Positions 19,981 to 42,991 of a DNA stretch of 64,000 bases are shown here, one piece after another (position 1 is the first letter of the stretch; each line of letters opens with the position of its first letter). Location: NCBI GenBank assembly GCA_000473305.1, contig CP006772.1, positions 1,984,001 to 2,048,000 on the forward strand, written 5' to 3'. This DNA comes from Bacteroidales bacterium CF. Its GTDB lineage: Bacteria; Bacteroidota; Bacteroidia; Bacteroidales; UBA932. The notes under the pieces were generated by a model that was not told where the DNA came from, made no database searches, and saw only the letters and a list, made by a program, of their open reading frames with translations. A program made the translations under genes and the position numbers.

Positions 19981-20083
19981 TGTGTTGTTTGATGTGCCGG
20001 GATAATGCCGTATGATTACCTTCATGCACCGCTTTCCTACAAGAATATTCTGTACCAGATATTATAAACTAACACACAATTCG

Positions 20084-20620
20084 ATGGACACTAATGCTGA
20101 AATTCTTGTCGATAAAAGAACTATCGATGAGATTATTTCCAGAAATGAGGGAAAGCCGGGAAAGCTGCTCACCGCCATGGAAGAGATTCAGGAGGCCAAT
20201 GAGTACAAATTCCTAGACCCTCAGAGTATGGATTACCTCTCCTCCCGGACAAAGGTGCCGCTTTCTCAGATCTACAGCGTGGCTACCTTCTACTCTTTTT
20301 TCAACCTGAAACCTCAGGGCAAGCATACCATAATTGTGTGCAGAGGCACAGCCTGTCACACAAAGGGCTCTAAGGTTCTACTTGACGACCTGGATGCGCT
20401 TCCGGGCTGCAAGGAGGCTTTTGAAGCAGGTGAAACCTGTTTCACTACTGAAGACAGACAAATAACAGTCAAAACCGTTGCCTGTTTCGGACAGTGTGCG
20501 CTGGCACCTGTTGTGGCAGTAGACGGCATTATCTACAGTAATGTTACATCAGAGAAAATTTTGAAACTATTACAAAACCTTAGGGAGGACAAAAAAGATG
20601 AAAATATCAGACTTTGCTAG
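20084..20620 (+). CDS. hydC: [FeFe] hydrogenase subunit HydC (NuoE-like)
   Basis: A 178-residue thioredoxin-like [2Fe-2S] protein related to NuoE. The cluster ligands are Cys86 and Cys91 (CRGTAC), Cys134 and Cys138 (CFGQC). The N-terminal helical region (RNEGKPGKLLTAMEEIQEAN) is the usual NuoE cap. It passes electrons between HydB and the rest of the hydrogenase complex in the cytoplasm. The ATG at 20084 is chosen over an in-frame ATG at 20012 because it matches the family N-terminus. It overlaps hydB by 23 bases. The start has no visible Shine-Dalgarno, unlike the two following genes. Confidence 0.93.
   Translation: MDTNAEILVDKRTIDEIISRNEGKPGKLLTAMEEIQEANEYKFLDPQSMDYLSSRTKVPLSQIYSVATFYSFFNLKPQGKHTIIVCRGTACHTKGSKVLLDDLDALPGCKEAFEAGETCFTTEDRQITVKTVACFGQCALAPVVAVDGIIYSNVTSEKILKLLQNLREDKKDENIRLC
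20582..20589 (+). promoter_or_regulatory. Strong Shine-Dalgarno site of hydB
   Basis: AGGGAGGA ends 8 bases before the hydB ATG at 20598, within the hydC coding sequence. Sites this strong are rare in the window and fix the hydB start. Confidence 0.65.
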
Positions 20621-23600
20621 TTTGGACGGCATCCGCAAAAAGGCAGCCGCCAAAATTCTTCCTGACAAGCCATATATCGCTATCGGTATGGGAACTTGTG
20701 GTATAGGAAGAGGTGCCGAGGTCCTCTATGACAGTTTTGAACGAATAATAAAAGAGAGAGGTCTTGACATAATCCTTAAAAAGACAGGTTGTTTCGGCTT
20801 TTGTGCCGAAGAGCCTCTTGTAAACGTTTACATTCCGGGTAAACCTCTTGTTATTTTGCACAGGGTATCCGAGGTGGATGTTATTCCTGTAATTTCAGGC
20901 ATTCAGAAGGGTATAATGCCTTTTAGAAATGTTCTTTGCCGTATCGAGGAGTGGGACTTTATTACAGGCAAATTTGAGTTCGGGAAGGGGCTTCCCGAGC
21001 ATCCGCTCTGGAACGAGATACCTTTCTTCAAATGGCAGAAAAAGATTGTACTCCGGAATTGCGGGCTGATAGTTCCGGATGATATAGAGGAGTACATAGC
21101 TGTAGGCGGATATTTTCCGTTATATAGTGTGCTTACTGGCAAATCTCCCAAAGATGTGATTGAGGAGGTGAAGATTTCCAAACTCCGTGGCCGAGGAGGA
21201 GCCGGTTTCCCTACCGGACAGAAATGGGAGCTTATGGCAAAAGTCAATGCTGAACAAAAGTATGTGATCTGCAATGCCGACGAGGGTGACCCGGGAGCTT
21301 TCATGAACAGGAATGAGATTGAGAGCGACCCGTTCATGCTTCTTGAAGGTATGACAATAGGTGCATACGCTATGGGGGCATCAAAAGGAGTGGTATATAT
21401 CAGAGCCGAGTATCCGCTTGCAGTCAAGCGTCTGAAGGGAGCCATCGATCAGGCTAAGTCTCTCGGTCTTCTTGGACATAACATTATGGGTACCGGATTC
21501 AACTTTGAGATTGATATTGTGGAAGGGGCCGGAGCTTTTGTCTGCGGAGAGGAGACAGCTCTTATACGCAGTATAGAGGGCAGGGCGGGAAGGCCGACTC
21601 CAAGACCGCCTTATCCGGCTGCCAAGGGTGTATTCGGATTCCCTACCAACATAAATAATGTTGAAACATGGTGTAATATTCCTGTTGTAATGTCAAAAGG
21701 CGGTGCCTGGTTCACAGAGACTGGAACTGAAAAAAGCGCAGGGACAAAGGTATTCTCGCTTGTAGGCAAGGTGAAGAACACAGGGCTGGTGGAACTTCCG
21801 CTGGGATCAACCCTGGAGACGATTGTCTTCAGAATCGGCGAAGGCACCGGCAGTCAGAAAAGGGTGAAGGCTGTACAGAGCGGAGGCCCTTCCGGAGGTT
21901 GTATTCCTATAGATTATCTTAAGACTCCGGTGGATTATGAGTCTCTTAATGCACTCGGGGCAATCATGGGTTCAGGAGGTATGGTTGTTATGGATCAGGA
22001 CAACTGTATGGTCGATGTTGCCCGCTATTTTACCGAGTTCTCGAACTCGGAGTCCTGCGGGAAATGCACCCCTTGCCGTGAAGGTCTGGCCCAGACCCTT
22101 GAGATACTCAAGAAATTTACAAACGGGACAGCTGTTGCTCAAGATATCAGTACACTTGAAGAGCTGGGTAAGGTAATAAAGGCTACCGCTCTCTGCGGTC
22201 TGGGCCAGACTGCCCCGAATCCTGTGCTCACAACCCTGAGATACTTCAAGGATGAGTATGACCATCACATGATTGAGAAGAAGTGTGAGCCAGGAATCTG
22301 CCAGGACCTCTTTACTGCTCTCTGCGAGAACAGTTGCCCGATGCACATGAATATTCCGCAATACCTGCAGCTTCTCAAAGAGGATAAGCTGGAGGAGGCA
22401 TTTGAATCAACTCTGAGAGACAATCCGCTACCTTCGACTATTGGGCGAATATGTCACTTCCACTGTCAGATGAAGTGCCGCAGAGAAGGCATCGATGCCC
22501 CTGTGTCACAGGGTGAGATTCACCGTTACATCTCTGACACAATCTATGCAGAAGGCAAGACCAGAAAGATATATGACAGGATTATCAGTGAAAAGATGCC
22601 ACCTACCTATAAGAAAATTGCAGTCATCGGAGGTGGCCCGGCAGGGCTTACTGCTGCCTACTACCTTGTAAGGCTCGGACATGATGTGACTGTATATGAT
22701 TCCGAAACAGAGGCGGGAGGTATACTCAGATGGGGTATTCCTAAGTACAGGCTTCCTCTTGATGTCCTTCAACGGGAGATAGAGTTTATCAGAGAGCTGG
22801 GAGTCAATTTCGTTTTCAACACTGCTGTCGGGAAAGATATTTCAATGGAGCAGCTCGAACATGACAATCATGCCGTAATAATTGCAGTCGGTGCAAATAA
22901 AGACACCGAACTTCAGATACCTGGCTGTAAGCTGAGCGGAGTAATATCCGGCATGGAGTTCCTGAAGGATGTATCACTGGGTAAGAAACCTGAGCTGGGA
23001 CACCATGTTGTTATAGTCGGTGCCGGCAATGTGGCAATCGATGCAGCCCGTACAGCTCAGAGATTCGGAGCCGAGGTGACTGTCGTATACAGGAGGCTCA
23101 AGGCTGACATGCCTGCAAATAAGGATGAGATTAAGGAGGCCGAGAATGAGGGCGTTAACTTCCTCTTCCTCTGCAATCCTGACGAAATCCTTGCTGATGC
23201 AAATGACAAGGTCAGGGGAATCAGTCTGATGAAGATGGCATGCGGTGAGATTGATCTCTCTAACAGACGCAAACCTGTTCCTACAGGTGAAAGCTTCACA
23301 ATAAGCTGCGACACTGTAATTATGGCCATCGGAGAAGAGGTTGAAGCCGGATTTGCAAAGGATCACGGCATCAAGACTCTGAGCAATGGCAATGTCTATG
23401 TAGATCACTTCACTCAGGAGACATCCCGACCTAAATTCTATGCAATAGGTGATGCAACTACCGGTCCGGCAACAGCTGCCGAGGCGATGGGTCTTGCAAA
23501 GAAGGCTGCTGAGGTTATCGATTACAAACTGATGGACAAGAGACGTTTCCACAGACTCTTCAGAGAGTTTGAATACAGCGACGAGGTTCCTCTCAAACCG

Positions 23601-23762
23601 GAAGGCGGAAACCGCCATTACTCAGTCAAACGGCCGCTGGAAGAGAGGATTGGCAACTTCAACGAGATCAGTCTCGGTTACACACCGGCACAAGCCTATG
23701 CCGAGGCAGCAAGGTGCCTGCGCTGCGATGTCCGTACCACAGTCAAAACAGAGGAGGAATAA
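20598..23762 (+). CDS. hydB: HydB: NuoF-like hydrogenase subunit fused to a GltD/NfnB-like flavoprotein
   Basis: A 1054-residue protein. About 1-110 is a thioredoxin-like [2Fe-2S] domain (GTCGIGRG; GCFGFC). About 140-560 is the NuoF/HydB core with FMN/NAD(H) motifs (GRGGAGFPTGQKW, NADEGDPGAFMNR, GAGAFVCGEETAL) and a [4Fe-4S] site at Cys487, Cys490, Cys493 and Cys533. About 570-1054 is a complete GltD-like unit: iron-sulphur Cys at 576, 580, 619, 623 and 627, an FAD site GGGPAG from 678 and an NAD(P)H site GAGNVAIDAAR from 808. The double-ferredoxin tail of classical bifurcating HydB is not present. It adds a second flavin and pyridine-nucleotide site to the hydrogenase. Confidence 0.93.
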   Translation: MKISDFASLDGIRKKAAAKILPDKPYIAIGMGTCGIGRGAEVLYDSFERIIKERGLDIILKKTGCFGFCAEEPLVNVYIPGKPLVILHRVSEVDVIPVISGIQKGIMPFRNVLCRIEEWDFITGKFEFGKGLPEHPLWNEIPFFKWQKKIVLRNCGLIVPDDIEEYIAVGGYFPLYSVLTGKSPKDVIEEVKISKLRGRGGAGFPTGQKWELMAKVNAEQKYVICNADEGDPGAFMNRNEIESDPFMLLEGMTIGAYAMGASKGVVYIRAEYPLAVKRLKGAIDQAKSLGLLGHNIMGTGFNFEIDIVEGAGAFVCGEETALIRSIEGRAGRPTPRPPYPAAKGVFGFPTNINNVETWCNIPVVMSKGGAWFTETGTEKSAGTKVFSLVGKVKNTGLVELPLGSTLETIVFRIGEGTGSQKRVKAVQSGGPSGGCIPIDYLKTPVDYESLNALGAIMGSGGMVVMDQDNCMVDVARYFTEFSNSESCGKCTPCREGLAQTLEILKKFTNGTAVAQDISTLEELGKVIKATALCGLGQTAPNPVLTTLRYFKDEYDHHMIEKKCEPGICQDLFTALCENSCPMHMNIPQYLQLLKEDKLEEAFESTLRDNPLPSTIGRICHFHCQMKCRREGIDAPVSQGEIHRYISDTIYAEGKTRKIYDRIISEKMPPTYKKIAVIGGGPAGLTAAYYLVRLGHDVTVYDSETEAGGILRWGIPKYRLPLDVLQREIEFIRELGVNFVFNTAVGKDISMEQLEHDNHAVIIAVGANKDTELQIPGCKLSGVISGMEFLKDVSLGKKPELGHHVVIVGAGNVAIDAARTAQRFGAEVTVVYRRLKADMPANKDEIKEAENEGVNFLFLCNPDEILADANDKVRGISLMKMACGEIDLSNRRKPVPTGESFTISCDTVIMAIGEEVEAGFAKDHGIKTLSNGNVYVDHFTQETSRPKFYAIGDATTGPATAAEAMGLAKKAAEVIDYKLMDKRRFHRLFREFEYSDEVPLKPEGGNRHYSVKRPLEERIGNFNEISLGYTPAQAYAEAARCLRCDVRTTVKTEEE
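23751..23758 (+). promoter_or_regulatory. Shine-Dalgarno site of hydA
   Basis: GAGGAGGA, in the last codons of hydB, lies 6 bases before the hydA ATG at 23765 and decides that start over an in-frame upstream alternative at 23714. Confidence 0.6.
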
Positions 23763-23764
23763 TC

Positions 23765-25537
23765 ATGGAAAATAATAATGTGAATATAACCGTAGACGGC
23801 AGGGGATATCAGGTACCGGCCGGTTCTACTATACTTGAGGCCTGTCGTGGCATAGGGATACAAATACCGTCTCTTTGCTATATGAAAGATGTCTCTCACA
23901 ATGCATCGTGCGCTATATGCGTGGTTGAGGTAAAGGGAGCAAAAGCCCTTGTAAGGTCATGCATAAGCAATGTTGCTGAAGGGATGGAGATAAAGACCCA
24001 CTCCCCTCTTGTGGATCAGGCCAGGAAAATCAATCTTGAGCTCATACTAGCCAACCACCCGAAAGACTGCCTTATTTGCGAGAGGAACGGCAACTGTGAA
24101 TTGCAGGATCTTACAGCAACCATAGGAATAAAGGAGACTGTATTTACAAGAACAAAACCGGCCGGCAAGGTGGATGACACATCAGTCTCACTTCTCAGGA
24201 CTCCCGAAAAGTGTATATTATGTGGCAGATGCGTTGCTGTCTGTTCTCAGGTGCAGACTGTACATGCAATCGATTTTACAGGAAGGGGGCTGAAGACTAA
24301 AATATCCACCTATCTGGACAAAGGTCTCGGCAATGTTGCCTGCACAAACTGTGGTCAATGTGCCCTTGTGTGCCCTACGGCTGCAATTACAGAAAAAGAT
24401 GAGTCAAGGAGTGTCTTCGACGAGATATACAACGAGAACAAATATGTTATTGTGCAAACAGCCCCGGCAATCCGTGTAGGTATTGGTGAGGCAATGGGTA
24501 TGGAATATGGAGCTCTTGTTACAGGCAAAATGGTTGCAGCTCTTCGCAGGGTGGGATTTGACAAGGTTTTCGACACCCAATTCACTGCCGACCTTACAAT
24601 CATGGAGGAGGGATTCGAGCTAATACACAGAATTAAAAACAAAGGTGTTTTACCTATGGTTACATCCTGCTCTCCGGGGTGGATAAAATTCATAGAACAC
24701 TTCTTCCCGAAATCCCTTGACCACCTTTCAACATGCAAATCACCTCAGCAGATGTTCGGAGCCGTTGCAAAGACATACTATGCAGAAAAGCTTGGAATTG
24801 ATCCGAGGAAGATTGTCGTTGTCTCAATCATGCCTTGTACCGCCAAAAAGTTCGAGTGCAAGAGACCTGAGATGAAGTCTGCATTTGAGTTCTGGAAAGA
24901 GAAGATGGGACTCAGTGAAAGCGAGTCATTCTTCGATGTTGACTACGTGCTTACAACCAGAGAGCTCGCAAGAATGTTCAGACAATCCGGAATAGATTTC
25001 AAGAATCTTCCTGAAGAGGAGTTTGACGAGCCACTTGGAATATCTACCGGTGCCGGCGTTATTTTCGGTGCCACAGGAGGTGTGATGGAGGCTGCCGTTC
25101 GTACCGCCTATGAGGTTCTGACCGGTAAACCTCTTCCTAAGATAGACCTCAATGCTGTCAGAGGGTTCGAGGGTATTAAAGAGGCAGAACTTGACATCGA
25201 TGGCCTGAAACTAAAGATTGCCGTAGCACACACTCTCAAAAATGCCCGCACATTGCTGGATCAGATTGAGGAGGGAAAATCCCCCTATGCCTTCATTGAG
25301 GTCATGACCTGCCCGGGAGGATGTCTCGGAGGAGGCGGACAATCAATTCCTACGACATGGGAGATCCGGCAAAAGAGAGCCGACTCTATTTACAAGGAGG
25401 ACTCTCTCAAACCGATCCGTAAATCGCATGAAAATCCGGCCATTAAAGCTATTTATGATGAATTCCTAAAAGAGCCTCTTGGCCATCACTCTCACGAACT
25501 GCTCCATACCAAGTATACTGAGCGTGGAATATTCTGA
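23765..25537 (+). CDS. hydA: [FeFe] hydrogenase catalytic subunit HydA
   Basis: A 590-residue enzyme for reversible H2 formation. Domains in order: [2Fe-2S] ferredoxin-like (IPSLCYMKDVSHNASCAIC), a His/Cys [4Fe-4S] site (HPKDCLICERNGNC), two [4Fe-4S] motifs (CILCGRCVAVC, CTNCGQCALVC), the H-cluster domain and a small-subunit region near the end. H-cluster ligands are Cys302 (TSCSPGW), Cys358 (MPCTAKK), Cys516 and Cys520 (TCPGGCLGGGG), all intact. It lies 2 bases after hydB in one operon, so it should form the HydABC complex exchanging electrons with NAD(P)H and ferredoxin. The maturases HydE, HydF and HydG are not in this window. Confidence 0.96.
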   Translation: MENNNVNITVDGRGYQVPAGSTILEACRGIGIQIPSLCYMKDVSHNASCAICVVEVKGAKALVRSCISNVAEGMEIKTHSPLVDQARKINLELILANHPKDCLICERNGNCELQDLTATIGIKETVFTRTKPAGKVDDTSVSLLRTPEKCILCGRCVAVCSQVQTVHAIDFTGRGLKTKISTYLDKGLGNVACTNCGQCALVCPTAAITEKDESRSVFDEIYNENKYVIVQTAPAIRVGIGEAMGMEYGALVTGKMVAALRRVGFDKVFDTQFTADLTIMEEGFELIHRIKNKGVLPMVTSCSPGWIKFIEHFFPKSLDHLSTCKSPQQMFGAVAKTYYAEKLGIDPRKIVVVSIMPCTAKKFECKRPEMKSAFEFWKEKMGLSESESFFDVDYVLTTRELARMFRQSGIDFKNLPEEEFDEPLGISTGAGVIFGATGGVMEAAVRTAYEVLTGKPLPKIDLNAVRGFEGIKEAELDIDGLKLKIAVAHTLKNARTLLDQIEEGKSPYAFIEVMTCPGGCLGGGGQSIPTTWEIRQKRADSIYKEDSLKPIRKSHENPAIKAIYDEFLKEPLGHHSHELLHTKYTERGIF

Positions 25538-37964: not shown

Positions 37965-38564
37965 CTATACCAACCCTGCAAAACCCATGAATGCAAGGGC
38001 AAGTATGCTTGCGGTAATAAGTGCGATTGGTGTACCTTTGAAAGCCTTGGGAACATTGTTGAGTTCAAGTTGTTCCCTCAGACCGGCAAAGAGTACCATT
38101 GCTAAACCAAATCCAACTGCACTGGCTGTTGAATAAACCACAGACTCAGCTAAATTTAACATATGCGGATCTCCACCAAATGCGAATTCCTTAGAAACTA
38201 CAATGATTGCAAGGCCCAACACACAACAGTTGGTTGTTATTAACGGAAGAAAAATACCTAATGCCTGATACAAAGAGGGGCTTATTTTTTTGAGAATTAT
38301 CTCAACCATCTGTACGAGGGCTGCAATAACAAGTATAAAAGCCACGGTCTGCATGAACTCAATGCCAAGAGGAATCAGGACATAGTATTGAAGCAGGTAA
38401 GTTACAAGAGTAGATAGTGCTATTACAAATACTACAGCACCGGACATACCGGCTGCTGTGCTGATTTTATTAGATACTCCAAGAAAAGGGCATATACCCA
38501 GAAATTGCGATAGTAGTACGTTGTTAACGAATACGGCTGCTATTATTATAATTATGTATTCCAT
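37965..38564 (-). CDS. rnfA: Rnf complex subunit A
   Basis: A 199-residue six-helix membrane protein ([33 protein letters not shown]) of the RnfA/NqrE family. In the Rnf complex (ferredoxin:NAD+ oxidoreductase, sodium- or proton-pumping) RnfA and RnfE form the membrane core carrying an intramembrane iron site; NCC in TTNCCVLG holds the expected Cys. It is the last of six contiguous rnf genes, 5 bases after rnfE. Confidence 0.96.
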
Positions 38565-38569
38565 ACTCT

Positions 38570-39163
38570 TTACTTATCTGTGAATTTTGATTTGTACATA
38601 TTAAACAGAACCATCAGATATCCAAGAACCATAAAAGCACCCGGTGCAAGGACAAAAGCAAGCATTCCGTCACCATCTATTAGTTTGAAACCGAATATTG
38701 ACGCTGTACCCAGAAGCTCTCTGACAGCTCCTAATACTGTAAGAGACAATGTAAAACCCAGCCCGATTCCAATGCCGTCGAGTGCAGAATCCAAAACCGT
38801 ATTCTTTGAAGCAAAGGCTTCTGCCCGTCCTAATACTATACAGTTAACAACAATAAGAGGTATGAATATTCCCAATGTCTGGTATAGTCCTGGTGTGTAT
38901 GCCTGCATCAGCAGTTGAAGTACTGTAACCACAGCAGCGATGAGGACAATGTATACCGGAATTCTAACCTTGTCAGGAACCTGTTTTGCCACAAGAGAGA
39001 TCAGAACGTTTGAGAAGATCAACACGAAGGTTGTAGCCACTCCCATACCCAATCCGTTAATTGCCGAAGTTGTAGTCGCAAGTGTAGGGCACATACCCAG
39101 CACTAAAACGAATGTAGGATTGTCTTTTACAAATCCTTTTGTTATAAGGCTTAACTTACTCAT
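38570..39163 (-). CDS. rnfE: Rnf complex subunit E
   Basis: A 197-residue six-helix protein of the RnfE/NqrD family, a paralogue of RnfA with inverse topology. [19 protein letters not shown] and [15 protein letters not shown] give the conserved Cys residues. It overlaps rnfG by 8 bases and precedes rnfA by 5. Confidence 0.95.
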
Positions 39164-39758
39164 TTACTGCCTCCTTTTCTGTTTTGTCTGCCACACATAA
39201 TTTAAACACCTCATATGCAGATGTCATTGCTCCGCAAAAAGCCCTCGAGGATATTGTCGAAGCTGTGATTGCATCAACATCGCCACCGTCTTTCTTAACG
39301 GATAGTTTGAAATCAGCTGGATTCTTTCCGTTAAACTGCAGGCTGAAATCGCTTTTACCTGCTACCATCTTGTCTCCCAGGCCCGGGGTTTCGGAGTGTG
39401 TGAGGACAACTGTATTTATAATTGTACCATCCATGCTGAATCCGACCATCAGAGTGACTCTACCGCCAAATCCGGCATTTGAGAATGTCTCTACGGCATA
39501 ACCTACTGTCTCTCCCCCCTTTATGGCAGGATACACTTTATATTGAGAGCCGTTGTACTCTTTTGTGAAAGCCTCTCCGTTAGGGTCGTTGTCAAAAGGT
39601 GGAACCACACCGGCTATCGATTGGTTTATCTTTGCCAGCTGTGCAGCCTCAATCGGCTCTTTTGTCAGAACATATGCCCCGCCCAGCAGAGCAGATGATG
39701 CAAGACAGATAAGTGTAAGCACCATCACCATATTCTTTAATGTAGACTCTCTAGCCAT
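39156..39758 (-). CDS. rnfG: Rnf complex subunit G (covalent FMN subunit)
   Basis: A 200-residue protein with one N-terminal helix at about 9-30 and a periplasmic FMN-binding domain. GVVPPFDNDPNGEAFTKEYN near 46 and VVLTHSETPGLGDKMVAG near 117 are typical of RnfG/NqrC. The expected ApbE-type FMN attachment motif Dxx[ST]GA[ST] appears as DAITASTISS, with Gly replaced by Ala and Ala by Ser; the threonine to be flavinylated is kept. It overlaps rnfD and rnfE by 8 bases each. Confidence 0.94.
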   Translation of the reverse strand: MARESTLKNMVMVLTLICLASSALLGGAYVLTKEPIEAAQLAKINQSIAGVVPPFDNDPNGEAFTKEYNGSQYKVYPAIKGGETVGYAVETFSNAGFGGRVTLMVGFSMDGTIINTVVLTHSETPGLGDKMVAGKSDFSLQFNGKNPADFKLSVKKDGGDVDAITASTISSRAFCGAMTSAYEVFKLCVADKTEKEAVNE

Positions 39759-40752
39759 TCTTTACCTCCTTTCCGAAATATGCCGGTTTCATGAACTTGT
39801 TGATCAGTGGTACAAAAGCATTCATAATAAGGATTGCGAACGATATCCCCTCAGGATATGATCCGAAGTACCTTATCAGGACTGTGATTATTCCTATTCC
39901 CACTCCATATAGTATCATACCTTTCTTGCTCATAGGAGATGTCACATAGTCTGTGGCCATAAATATGGAGCCTAACAATATACCTCCTGAGAGGATATTA
40001 AAGAGAGGATCTGTGTACTGTTCCGGATTGACAACCCAGAAGATACCTGTGAACAGTGCTACTGTAATTATGATTGATAGAGGAATATGTACTGAAATCA
40101 CCCTTCTGTATAGAAGATATGCAAAACCGATTAGCAGTGCCAGTGCCGATACCTCGCCGACAGAACCTCCTATCTTACTGAAGAGCATCTGAATATAAGA
40201 GAAATTGTGTGTCTGGAATATCTGTTCCAATGACAAGCCTTGTGCAAGTCCCTCTTTTACAATTGAAAGAGCCGTTGCCCCTGAGGAGGCATCTATACCC
40301 TCCCTGAACCATGATGCCGGTATTGTCCAGTCCGTCATTAGCACCGGAAAGGATACCAGGAGGAAAACTCGGCCGACGAGCGCGGGATTGAACAGGTTCT
40401 GGCCAAGTCCGCCGAATGTAAGTTTGGCAACACCTATGGCAACTATTGAGCCGATAAGCATAAGCCACCATGGGGAGTTGGGAGGCAGGTTCAGTGCCAA
40501 GAGCAATCCTGTTACCGCTGCCGAATAATCACCAATCGTAACAGTACACTTTATTAGATATCTCTGAATTACATATTCAACTGCAACACATGTCACAACT
40601 CCGACAAGGGCCAGTTTTATTGCCGAGAATCCGAAGAAATATATGGATACCAGCAATGAGGGCACCAGGGCGATGATGACATCTCTCATAAGGCTCTTGG
40701 TGGTCTGTGGACCATGTATGTGGGGAGCCGGAGATACAAGTAATTTTTTCAT
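39751..40752 (-). CDS. rnfD: Rnf complex subunit D (covalent FMN subunit)
   Basis: A 333-residue polytopic protein of the NqrB/RnfD family. The start (MKKLLVSPAPHIHGPQTTKS) and the helices are typical, and DASSGATALS keeps the Dxx-SGAT motif for covalent FMN attachment to threonine. It lies 33 bases after rnfC and overlaps rnfG. Confidence 0.96.
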   Translation of the reverse strand: MKKLLVSPAPHIHGPQTTKSLMRDVIIALVPSLLVSIYFFGFSAIKLALVGVVTCVAVEYVIQRYLIKCTVTIGDYSAAVTGLLLALNLPPNSPWWLMLIGSIVAIGVAKLTFGGLGQNLFNPALVGRVFLLVSFPVLMTDWTIPASWFREGIDASSGATALSIVKEGLAQGLSLEQIFQTHNFSYIQMLFSKIGGSVGEVSALALLIGFAYLLYRRVISVHIPLSIIITVALFTGIFWVVNPEQYTDPLFNILSGGILLGSIFMATDYVTSPMSKKGMILYGVGIGIITVLIRYFGSYPEGISFAILIMNAFVPLINKFMKPAYFGKEVKNG

Positions 40753-40785
40753 CCGTAAATTATTAAATTATCCAATCCTTATTCT

Positions 40786-42123
40786 CTACTTTTTTGGTCT
40801 GCTTCTCATGATTTTCAAGACCTTAGCCTTGGAGAGCCTTATTGTGTCCAAAAGTGGTATGTTTGCCGGACAAGAATAGAGGCAACATCCGCATTCAATA
40901 CAATCCTGGACCATATTCTCCTCGAGTTCTTCCATCCTGTCGGCCCTTGCAAGCCTGTTGAGCAGATATGGCTGCAGCCCCATCGGACAAGCTTCAACAC
41001 ACTTAGCACACCTGATACAGTTTCTTTCAGGGCCTCTTTTTGTCTCCTCTTCTGTCAACAAAAGAAGTCCGGATGTACTCTTTACTGATGCGGCATCCAT
41101 ACAGGCAACAGCTTTTCCCATCATAGGACCGCCGCTGATAAGCTTGACAGCATCTTTCGGGAATCCTCCGATTGCAAACATCATTGTATCAAAGGTTGTC
41201 CCAACCCTGAGCCTGAAGTTACGCTGTTCAGTCATACATTTTCCTGTAACTGTGACTATTCCGTCAATAAGCGGTTTGTTTTTCTGAACTGCTTCATATA
41301 CTGCAAGAGCTGTTCCCACATTCTGAACAACTGCTCCCGTGTCTATAGGTAAACCCATTGATGGAACTCTTCGGCTGGTCACTGCATCAATAAGCTGTTT
41401 TTCTCCGCCTTGAGGGTATCTCTTTTTTAATGGGACAATCTTTATATCTGTATAACTCTTTTCAGCAACGCTCTTCATGCTCTTTATGGCCTTCGGCTTG
41501 TTCTCCTCAATGCCTACATATGCCTTAGAGACACCAAGCGCCTTCATCATTATTCTCACACCAATGAGTATCTCCTCAGGATTTTCCAGCATAATCCTGT
41601 AGTCTGATGTAAGATAAGGCTCACATTCGGATCCGTTGATAAGTAGCACGTCTGCAACTTTCCCGGGAGGGGGTGTCAGCTTAATATGGGTCGGAAAGGC
41701 AGCTCCTCCCAGACCAACAACACCACACTCTGCTATTCTCTTTATTATCTCCTCTTTGCTGAGTTTTATATCTCTTAAAATCTCATTGCTTCTGTCTATT
41801 GTATCAACCCATTCATCTCCCTCAACATCTATAACGACATGTTGCACTTGGTTTCCTGCCAGATCAGGTAACAACTCAACCGATCTTACCGTTCCTGATA
41901 CCGATGAATGTATATTGGCTGAAATAAAGCCGGAAGCCTTAGCAATCAACTGTCCTGCCTTTACTTTGTCACCTTTGGCCACTATTGGCTCAGCAGGCGC
42001 ACCAAGATGCTGAGACATAGAAATATACGCTGTCTCCACTAACGGGAAATTCTCGATAGCTGCATCTTTGGATATTTTATTGTCGTGAGGATGAATTCCT
42101 CCTATTGAAAATGTTTTGCTCAT
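40786..42123 (-). CDS. rnfC: Rnf complex subunit C (NADH-binding, FMN and iron-sulphur)
   Basis: A 445-residue peripheral subunit with a NuoF-like FMN/NAD(H) fold and a C-terminal double [4Fe-4S] domain (CIRCAKCVEACPMG; CIECGCCLYSCPAN). The glycine-rich stretch GGAAFPTHIKL near 140 is the nucleotide/FMN region. ATG 42123 is used, not the in-frame TTG at 42144, because AGAGAGG sits properly before the ATG. It links NAD(H) to the membrane core. Confidence 0.96.
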   Translation of the reverse strand: MSKTFSIGGIHPHDNKISKDAAIENFPLVETAYISMSQHLGAPAEPIVAKGDKVKAGQLIAKASGFISANIHSSVSGTVRSVELLPDLAGNQVQHVVIDVEGDEWVDTIDRSNEILRDIKLSKEEIIKRIAECGVVGLGGAAFPTHIKLTPPPGKVADVLLINGSECEPYLTSDYRIMLENPEEILIGVRIMMKALGVSKAYVGIEENKPKAIKSMKSVAEKSYTDIKIVPLKKRYPQGGEKQLIDAVTSRRVPSMGLPIDTGAVVQNVGTALAVYEAVQKNKPLIDGIVTVTGKCMTEQRNFRLRVGTTFDTMMFAIGGFPKDAVKLISGGPMMGKAVACMDAASVKSTSGLLLLTEEETKRGPERNCIRCAKCVEACPMGLQPYLLNRLARADRMEELEENMVQDCIECGCCLYSCPANIPLLDTIRLSKAKVLKIMRSRPKK

Positions 42124-42133
42124 ATCCTCTCTA

Positions 42134-42991
42134 TTACTGTTCAACCAACGGAGAAACCTCTTTTTTTGGAACCCTTACAGGGAAGTTCACCTCCCATATG
42201 GCATGAGTCGGGCACTCGACTACACATTTACGGCAAAGTTTGCATTTATTATAGTCTATGTAAGCAAGGTTTGATGTTATGGTGATTGCGTCGTAGGCAC
42301 ACACCTTCTGGCACTTCGTACAACCGATACATGCAACAGCACAAGCCTTCTTGGCAACTCCTCCCTTATCCTTATTTACGCAGGATACAAAAATACGCCT
42401 GCTCTTTATACCCTTATTTCTCAGCTCGATGATCATCTTAGGGCAAGCCTTGACACAAGCCCCGCATGCAGTACACTTACTCTCGTCAACCTCCGGAAGG
42501 CCGGTTCTTGGATCCATTTTAATTGCATCAAACTGACAAGAGAGGACACAGTCACCATGACCAAGGCATCCGTACTTACATGCTGTGTCTCCTGAATAGA
42601 ATGAAGCCATAACTGCACATGATGAAAAGCCATCGTAGTTGTTTGTCTTGGGCCTGTTGTCACATGTTCCGTTACATCTTACAACTGCAACCTGGGGTGT
42701 CTTTTCTGCCACCTCCATCCCGAGATACTGCGCAACCTGTTTCATCACATCGTTTCCACCTACAGGGCAGAAATTTTTTTCAAGATTGTCAGCCTTGACA
42801 CATGATTCTGCAAAAGCCCTGCAGCCGGCATAACCGCAACCTCCGCAGTTGGCACCGGGGAGAATTGCCTGAACATCATCAATCCTTGGGTCTTCCTCAA
42901 CCTTGAACTTCTGAGCGACAAAATAGAGTATCAGCGCCAGAAGGATGCCGAGAATACTTAAGGACAAGATCGTAAACAATACAGTATTCAT
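42134..42991 (-). CDS. rnfB: Rnf complex subunit B (multi-cluster ferredoxin)
   Basis: A 285-residue protein: one N-terminal helix (about 5-27), a Cys-rich [4Fe-4S] region (NCGGCGYAGCRAFAESC), then further Cys clusters (CKYGCLGHGDCVLSC; CTACGACVKACP; CIGCTKCQKVC; CKLCRKCVVECP). It takes electrons from soluble ferredoxin. It is the first rnf gene and overlaps the rseC end by one base (TAATG). Confidence 0.96.
   Translation of the reverse strand: MNTVLFTILSLSILGILLALILYFVAQKFKVEEDPRIDDVQAILPGANCGGCGYAGCRAFAESCVKADNLEKNFCPVGGNDVMKQVAQYLGMEVAEKTPQVAVVRCNGTCDNRPKTNNYDGFSSCAVMASFYSGDTACKYGCLGHGDCVLSCQFDAIKMDPRTGLPEVDESKCTACGACVKACPKMIIELRNKGIKSRRIFVSCVNKDKGGVAKKACAVACIGCTKCQKVCAYDAITITSNLAYIDYNKCKLCRKCVVECPTHAIWEVNFPVRVPKKEVSPLVEQ

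What the first reader, a model, noticed from the sequence alone, without database searches (positions are those of the whole stretch)
20598..23762. HydB fused to a complete GltD/NfnB-like flavoprotein
One 1054-residue chain joins a NuoF-like FMN/NAD(H) module to a GltD-like module with iron-sulphur Cys, FAD and a second NAD(P)H site, in place of the double-ferredoxin tail of classical bifurcating HydB. With HydA and HydC this would have two flavins and two nucleotide sites, so it could couple H2 with both NADH and NADPH or bifurcate at FAD. GltD-linked [FeFe] hydrogenases have been noted in hydrogenase classifications (group A2), but the function of the covalent fusion is, to my knowledge, not settled.
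Basis: partly seen in the sequence, partly recalled or inferred. Interest (0 to 1): 0.75.

Follow-up and report, generated by a model that had tools for sequence, protein, structure and literature searches.

The report
Hydrogenase with NADPH module replacing ferredoxin
A bacterial hydrogen enzyme carries, in the place where its relatives hand electrons to the small iron-sulphur protein ferredoxin, a complete module of the kind that uses the coenzyme NADPH, which suggests an untested way of coupling two coenzymes to hydrogen.

Summary
One uninterrupted 1054-aa ORF (20598-23762) joins a HydB core (FMN/NAD, clusters B1 and B2) to a complete GltD-type flavoprotein (two [4Fe-4S] sites, FAD, NADP-type site), between hydC and hydA. 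The double-ferredoxin tail is absent. Eighty further loci, seven phyla by record title, carry the same fusion; the Cys and His ligands of B1, B2 and both GltD clusters are invariant wherever the row is not cut, and the C-x4-C-x7-C-x3-C-P junction is identical in 81 of 81 rows. A second HydB lineage has the same fusion in the same register. Bifurcation at the FAD is not supported: the module is StnC-like, with an invariant His where NfnB has Glu and StnC has Lys. It fails the HydDB rule for group A2, and the genome has no glutamate synthase large subunit. Best reading: a Bfu-type hydrogenase in which NADP(H) replaces ferredoxin as exit from cluster B2, so NADH plus NADPH make H2, reversibly. 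The wiring is inferred; coupling is untested. The architecture is not unknown: a 2018 genome paper notes one such HydB in Vallitalea and guesses a link to glutamate. The spread, ligands, junction and mechanism were not found in print. New variant of a known kind.

The parts
20084..20620 (+). hydC: NuoE-like [2Fe-2S] subunit (ORF opens at 20012; likely start 20084)
   Evidence: PF01257 E 9e-38; C-x4-C...C-x3-C in 79 of 79 HydC rows; homologues align from residue 25
20598..22301 (+). HydB core of the fusion, residues 1-568: thioredoxin-like domain with 3 of 4 Cys, FMN/NAD domain, B1 cluster (C487 C490 C493 C533), B2 cluster (C470, T508, H557, C563, C568)
   Evidence: Pfam; ligands carried over on the alignment to 7t2r_B with residue numbers of PMC9304861; conservation
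22302..22322 (+). 7-residue junction between the last B2 Cys (C568) and the first GltD cluster Cys (C576)
   Evidence: same length in 81 of 81 rows; same register in the class II and III fusions
22323..23759 (+). GltD/StnC-like module, residues 576-1054: distal cluster C576 C580 C1040 C1043, proximal cluster C619 C623 C627 + H642 (His as ligand inferred), FAD site GGGPAG 678-683, NADP site GAGNVA...YRR 808-833
   Evidence: Pfam Fer4_20 and Pyr_redox_2; PDB alignments; conservation; slot comparison
23765..25537 (+). hydA: H-cluster subunit with [2Fe-2S], NuoG-type and 2x[4Fe-4S] domains; L1 TSCSPGW, L2 MPCTAKKFE, L3 EVMTCPGGCLGGGGQ
   Evidence: PF02906, PF02256, PF13510, PF10588, PF12838; NF040763 group A6 879 bits, cut-off 765; 7q4v_A A. 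woodii HydA 611 bits, with the same TSCSPGW

Best explanation
It is a Bfu/HydABC-type [FeFe] hydrogenase in which NADP(H) takes the place of ferredoxin. HydA makes or oxidises H2; its clusters lead to B1 and the FMN/NAD(H) site of the HydB core. The second branch, which in classical HydB runs FMN/C1 - B2 - B3 - B4 - ferredoxin, here runs C1 - B2 - distal [4Fe-4S] - proximal [4Fe-4S] - FAD - NADP(H) inside one chain. In the likely direction NADH + NADPH + 2 H+ give 2 H2 + NAD+ + NADP+; the reverse would split electrons of H2 between NAD+ and NADP+. Shown: domain make-up, conserved ligands, operon, absence of the ferredoxin tail, predicted folds. Inferred: electron path, nucleotide specificity, coupling and direction.
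For: B1 ligands and B2 ligands C470, H557, C563, C568 are present in 81 of 81 rows; the Thr slot is T 73, S 6, C 1, V 1. PMC9304861 (section 6 part 1) says the B2 His is missing in 8 of 1558 BfuB and not present in non-bifurcating homologues. GltD cluster Cys and NADP motif R832 R833 are invariant where the row is not cut. The distal GltD Cys pair begins 7 residues after the last B2 Cys in 81 of 81, where 7 of 7 unfused HydB have the B3 motif 11-12 residues after it. The same junction register occurs in class II and III fusions; the class II HydB half belongs to another lineage (AU p 0.003). Losey markers A234, M236 and GGPSG are of the bifurcating type in 81 of 81. HydA has the H-cluster motifs and the genome has HydG, 519 bits. 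AF2 model mean pLDDT 83.7, pTM 0.70; Foldseek matches one half to Nfn-ABC/Stn/HydB chains (9bov_B TMt 0.94) and the other to NfnB (5jca_L TMt 0.82) and StnC-type chains.
Against: No biochemical datum. NADPH (about -380 mV, PMC9304861 Table 1) is a weaker reductant than ferredoxin, so the gain is modest: equilibrium H2 of 3 Pa for NADH, 100-147 Pa for NADH+NADPH, 15.7 kPa for NADH+ferredoxin. Y339 (60 Y, 21 F) is of the non-bifurcating type in most rows. The N-terminal [2Fe-2S] lacks one Cys, though StnB and HndC lack that cluster and bifurcate (PMC7483475 passages). Retained B2 could be a mere wire. The genome also has a classical HydABC and an NfnAB-like pair, so this enzyme is not the only link between the pools.
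Confidence: 0.5

Rival explanations
1. Uncoupled dual-nucleotide hydrogenase: NADH and NADPH each exchange electrons with H2 through one shared wire, so the enzyme only equilibrates H2, NAD(H) and NADP(H), a hydrogenase plus transhydrogenase without bifurcation.
For: The ferredoxin tail that receives the low-potential electrons is gone. Y339 is the residue that Losey 2020 finds in non-bifurcating HydB, in 60 of 81 rows. NADP(H) and H2 potentials are close.
Against: B2 with its His, A234, M236 and GGPSG are invariant; non-bifurcating homologues lack clusters B2-B5 (PMC9304861 passage). Tyr also stands at this place in 9n5u_B, from the T. sibiricus enzyme that PMC9304861 reports as bifurcating.
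Confidence: 0.28
2. Ferredoxin is still used, docking at the GltD clusters or at HydA, and NADP(H) is an added fourth partner (a Stn-like activity merged with a hydrogenase).
For: In Nfn the GltD-like NfnB has both the NADP(H) and the ferredoxin site (PMC10482914 passage). Nfn-ABC and StnB chains are among the closest solved HydB chains.
Against: In Stn ferredoxin is reduced at the C-terminus of StnB (PMC10482914), a domain that is missing here; the distal cluster is tethered to B2 (inference from the 7-residue junction).
Confidence: 0.12
3. Bifurcation takes place at the FAD of the GltD part, as in NfnAB.
For: An Arg of the motif Y-R-L-P (R718), which I take as the counterpart of NfnB R201 by position in the printed alignment, is invariant.
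Against: StnC keeps the corresponding Arg (R239) without bifurcating at FAD. The proximal cluster is C-x3-C-x3-C plus His, not C-x5-C-x3-C plus Glu as in 4 of 4 NfnB rows, one of them from the same genome. No NfnA gene in the operon.
Confidence: 0.05
4. Glutamate-linked enzyme (group A2 of HydDB; also the guess made for Vallitalea in PMC6163223): H2 coupled to glutamate synthesis or oxidation.
For: GltD homology. One divergent fusion (class III, L122) lies beside a glutamate-synthase-like gene (PF01645 57.6 bits), but that locus has no H-cluster subunit next to it.
Against: PF01645 finds only two partial matches in this genome, 20.9 and 20.5 bits, nominally over the 20.4-bit cut-off; the proteins are a nitronate monooxygenase type (162.6 bits) and an IMP dehydrogenase (370.4 bits). 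HydDB's A2 rule is not met.
Confidence: 0.03

Closest known systems
Second trimeric hydrogenase of Vallitalea guaymasensis L81 (PMC6163223, section 3.9 and a discussion passage)
   Same: HydB enlarged by a GltD domain after the FMN/NADH domain in place of the two-[4Fe-4S] domain; H-cluster HydA and HydC; the authors suggest a second NAD(P)H site
   Different: Its sequence was not compared here; the authors say its HydB keeps the N-terminal [2Fe-2S], unlike this one, and suggest a link to glutamate. No ligand, junction or distribution analysis in the parts seen
HydABC of Acetobacterium woodii (7q4v) and other Bfu-type [FeFe] hydrogenases
   Same: hydC, hydB and hydA together; H-cluster HydA (611 bits to 7q4v_A); FMN, B1 and B2 ligands
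   Different: HydB tail with two [4Fe-4S] (B3, B4) is replaced by a GltD module; N-terminal [2Fe-2S] lacks one Cys
StnABC / Nfn-ABC (Sporomusa ovata 8oh5, Caldicellulosiruptor 9bov, Thermococcus sibiricus 9n5u)
   Same: HydBC-like core plus GltD-like NADP(H) module with C-x3-C-x3-C proximal cluster; N-terminal [2Fe-2S] of the HydB homologue lost in StnB
   Different: There the GltD sits in the NuoG-like chain and feeds electrons in through B1; no H-cluster; ferredoxin tail kept; Lys at the cluster slot
NfnAB
   Same: GltD fold with two [4Fe-4S] clusters, FAD, NADP(H)
   Different: C-x5-C loop, Glu slot and an NfnA partner; none here
Group A2 (HydDB), 'glutamate synthase-linked (putative)'
   Same: A GltD domain next to an [FeFe] hydrogenase
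   Different: A2 excludes NuoF in the neighbouring protein; here GltD and NuoF are one chain

Membership tests
Bfu family (PMC9304861) | BfuB FMN/NAD domain and B1 cluster | tested here: met
Bfu family (PMC9304861) | B2 cluster ligands including His | tested here: met
   C470, H557, C563, C568 81 of 81; Thr slot T or S in 79 of 81
Bfu family (PMC9304861) | C-terminal 4Fe-4S ferredoxin domain in BfuB (IPR017896; B3, B4) | tested here: not met
   no Fer4 family apart from Fer4_20 in the fusion at E 0.001 with Pfam; present in the unfused HydB of the same genome. InterPro itself could not be run
Bfu family (PMC9304861) | N-terminal [2Fe-2S] of BfuB (B5) | tested here: not met
   first Cys slot is V 65, I 14, 2 rows cut; StnB also lacks it
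Bfu family (PMC9304861) | BfuC (NuoE-like) and BfuA partners | tested here: met
Bfu family (PMC9304861) | bifurcation with NAD(H) and ferredoxin | not testable with these tools
   needs enzyme assay
Stn / Nfn-Bfu | GltD domain in a NuoG-like chain without H-cluster | tested here: not met
   GltD is fused to HydB; HydA has an H-cluster
Stn / Nfn-Bfu | Lys at the proximal-cluster slot (K170 of StnC) | tested here: not met
   His in 81 of 81 class I rows
NfnAB | C-x5-C-x3-C with Glu slot and adjacent NfnA | tested here: not met
   operon
HydDB group A2 | protein downstream of HydA has GltD but not NuoF | tested here: not met
   rule; gene order
Non-bifurcating NADH-dependent [FeFe] hydrogenase (Losey 2020) | T/S at 232, K/S/A at 234, Y at 367 of TmHydB, no GGPSG | tested here: not met
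   one of four markers (Y339, 60 of 81) agrees; A234, M236 and GGPSG are of the bifurcating type in 81 of 81. Positions matched by motif, not by an alignment to TmHydB
[FeFe] hydrogenase group A, NCBIfam A6 | NF040763 score over cut-off | tested here: met
   879 bits, cut-off 765; the classical HydA of the same genome also passes, 883.5 bits, so the label does not separate them

The most novel reading that the evidence does not exclude
A ferredoxin-free electron-bifurcating hydrogenase: a natural domain swap, present on at least two HydB lineages in exactly the same register, in which cluster B2 drives NADP+ instead of ferredoxin through a [4Fe-4S] cluster with a His ligand, so that NADH and NADPH are confurcated to H2.
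Probability: 0.4. Interest if true: 0.8.

Novelty: new variant of a known kind. Interest (0 to 1): 0.57.

Why it matters
The HydBC core is held to bifurcate to NAD+ and ferredoxin by a mechanism still described as hypothetical (PMC9304861). A family in which the ferredoxin exit is replaced by an NADP(H) module while the B1 and B2 ligands are kept is a natural experiment: it tests whether B2 is the branch point and whether the low-potential branch can serve another acceptor. It would also give bacteria of several phyla a direct route from NADPH to H2, at a pressure about 30-50 times that reachable with NADH alone, and would change how such hydrogenases are annotated.

Tried and rejected
Group A2 / glutamate synthase: rejected for this genome. 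NfnB-like bifurcating FAD: rejected on cluster slot and loop. Separate proteins: no split version among the 80 loci, but these were found with this protein as query, so split relatives could have been missed. Local oddity: rejected. A single origin for class I and II fusions: rejected on the HydB half (AU p 0.003), not on the GltD half (p 0.34); the groups were named after seeing the tree and the references are few, so independent fusion and domain exchange both stay open. The distance between B2 and the GltD cluster could not be measured (no model coordinates; VIA library absent).

Literature. Searches of the held open-access library. Four other listed papers opened at the same time show no HydB-GltD fusion in the passages seen. 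Subscription papers and preprints are not in that library.
Full report
Observation. The window lies in a 2.66 Mb single-contig genome; its closest named relatives are Bacteroidales MAGs. ORF 20598-23762 is open over 1054 codons. Residues 1-568 are a HydB/NuoF core and residues 576-1043 a GltD-type flavoprotein. Upstream is a NuoE-like gene whose end overlaps the fusion's start; downstream, two bases after the stop codon and behind an AGAGGAGG, is an [FeFe] hydrogenase HydA. HydG is encoded elsewhere in the genome.

Conservation. The scan of genome contigs matched 180 stretches, of which 170 encode relatives and the best 80 were kept: Bacteroidota 49, Omnitrophota 11, Ignavibacteriota 7, Spirochaetota 6, Lentisphaerota 2, Verrucomicrobiota 2, FCPU426 1, two not assigned. 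The names are those of the records, nearly all of them MAGs. Of these 80, hydC lies upstream in 78, hydA downstream in 76, both in 74; the six misses are two proteins cut by a contig end and four whose contig ends within 580 bases. The gap to hydA is at most 232 bases in 72 of the 76 and 541-1073 in four. Of 395 genomes drawn evenly from the phylum, 11, own genome included, have a match at E 1e-250, four of them divergent at 44-47% identity. In one search, 2 of 24 genomes of the genus and 15 of 16 of other families of the order show no fusion. So it is widespread but patchy.

Cofactors. In the alignment of the window protein with the 80 others the B1 ligands C487, C490, C493, C533 and the B2 ligands C470, H557, C563, C568 are present in 81 of 81. 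The B2 assignment uses residues of PMC9304861 (section 6, part 1 of 2) carried over on the alignment to 7t2r_B. That paper says the B2 His is missing in 8 of 1558 BfuB and not present in non-bifurcating homologues. In the GltD half C576, C580, C619, C623, C627 are present in 81 of 81 and C1040, C1043 in 80 of 80 rows that reach them. [quoted passage not shown] StnB and HndC lack that cluster and belong to bifurcating enzymes (PMC7483475, passages). HydA rows (window and 76 loci): L1 in 72 of 77, L2 in 70 of 77, L3 in 65 of 77 with the strict pattern; of the twelve rows with a miss, eight end before L3 and four have GGAGQ for GGGQ with both Cys kept.

A distinctive cluster. The residue aligned with the fourth ligand of the FAD-proximal cluster is Glu in NfnB and Lys170 in StnC (PMC10482914, passages). 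In this family it is His642 in 81 of 81. In the 33 rows the slot is His in 18 class I rows, Lys in 11 (Stn/Nfn-ABC type, class II, class III and two other GltD proteins) and Glu in 4 NfnB, one from the same genome. That the His is a ligand is inferred.

Junction. C568, the last B2 ligand, is followed after exactly seven residues by C576, the first Cys of the GltD distal cluster, in 81 of 81 rows. In 7 of 7 unfused HydB from Bacteroidales genomes the B3 motif starts 11-12 residues after the same Cys. So the GltD cluster occupies the place of B3 in the chain. A structure prediction from 46 of the 81 rows gave mean pLDDT 83.7, pTM 0.70; Foldseek matches the halves to Nfn-ABC/Stn/HydB chains and to StnC-type and NfnB chains.

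Recurrence. Three of the divergent hits (L119-L121, class II) have a HydB half that groups with A. woodii HydB and the genome's own classical HydB, a Lys slot, and a HydA at about 50% identity downstream; a fourth (L122, class III) has no H-cluster subunit but a short NuoG-like gene and a glutamate-synthase-like gene. All four share the C-x4-C-x7-C-x3-C-P junction. The HydB tree rejects one clade of class I and II (p 0.003); the GltD tree does not (p 0.34). Either the fusion arose more than once in the same register or a fused GltD moved between HydB lineages; both suggest that the register matters. Reference rows were few and partly hand-copied.

How it most likely works. Shown: parts, ligands, order. 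Inferred: H2 - HydA clusters - B1 - FMN/NAD(H) on one side, and B2 - distal cluster - proximal cluster - FAD - NADP(H) in place of B2 - B3 - B4 - ferredoxin. With the potentials of PMC9304861 Table 1 (passage) the equilibrium H2 pressure is about 3 Pa for NADH alone, 147 Pa for NADH plus NADPH at -380 mV (100 Pa at -370 mV) and 15.7 kPa for NADH plus ferredoxin. The enzyme would drain NADPH and NADH together to H2 at low H2 pressure. The genome has a glucose-6-phosphate dehydrogenase, an NfnAB-like pair, an RnfC-type protein inside the window, and no PntB match. It also has a second, classical HydABC with the ferredoxin tail, so the two hydrogenases could serve different pools.

Against it. 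Coupling is not shown; an uncoupled enzyme that equilibrates H2 with both nucleotides is the main rival. Y339, of the type that Losey 2020 (section 17) finds in non-bifurcating HydB, stands in 60 of 81 rows, though the other three markers are of the bifurcating type.

Known or new. A genome paper on Vallitalea guaymasensis L81 (PMC6163223, section 3.9 read, discussion passage seen; [quoted passage not shown] So the architecture is in print, and it occurs outside the phyla listed above. Not found in the searches made: the spread, the conserved B2, the fixed junction, the His slot, the second backbone, or the idea that NADP(H) replaces ferredoxin. Schut 2022 defines BfuB by a C-terminal 4Fe-4S domain, so a fusion without it would fall outside that survey. 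HydDB's A2 rule excludes it. Papers seen: PMC9304861 abstract, sections 4 and 6 (part 1 of 2 each) and passages; PMC7311640 section 17 and passages; PMC10482914 section 7 and passages; PMC6163223 section 14 and passages; PMC7483475, PMC5037454, PMC4478896, PMC4967309, PMC7382037, PMC7768429, PMC6405883, PMC10327494, PMC8097209, PMC10134865, PMC5736913 passages; all others listings only.

Noticed in passing
L119-L121 (class II fusions): A second kind of HydB-GltD fusion with HydA downstream, on an A. woodii-like HydB backbone with intact N-terminal C-x4-C and C-x3-C and Lys at the cluster slot; same junction register.
   Followed up: partly
L122:2163-8502: HydB-GltD fusion without an H-cluster subunit beside it, next to a 237-aa NuoG-like protein and a 536-aa glutamate-synthase-like protein (PF01645 57.6 bits): possibly an NAD/NADP-linked glutamate synthase or another Bfu-like enzyme.
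   Followed up: partly
L106:1960-6016 (same genome): A classical HydC/HydA/HydB cluster with double-ferredoxin HydB tail; the genome also has a monomeric group B-type [FeFe] hydrogenase (L107:6933-8363, 501 bits) and two further PF02906 proteins.
   Followed up: partly
L113 and L114: In L113 HydC-like, HydB, a molybdopterin-type BfuA-like protein, an NfnA-like and an NfnB-like gene stand in a row; L114 looks alike by length and sequence starts.
   Followed up: no
L116:2498-4855: HydC and HydB in one 786-aa chain (two thioredoxin-like stretches), next to a 529-aa ORF that was not identified.
   Followed up: no
window 40786-42144 (-): RnfC-type protein (PF13375 106.7 bits) in a run of same-strand ORFs 37965-42991; the other Rnf subunits were not checked.
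   Followed up: no
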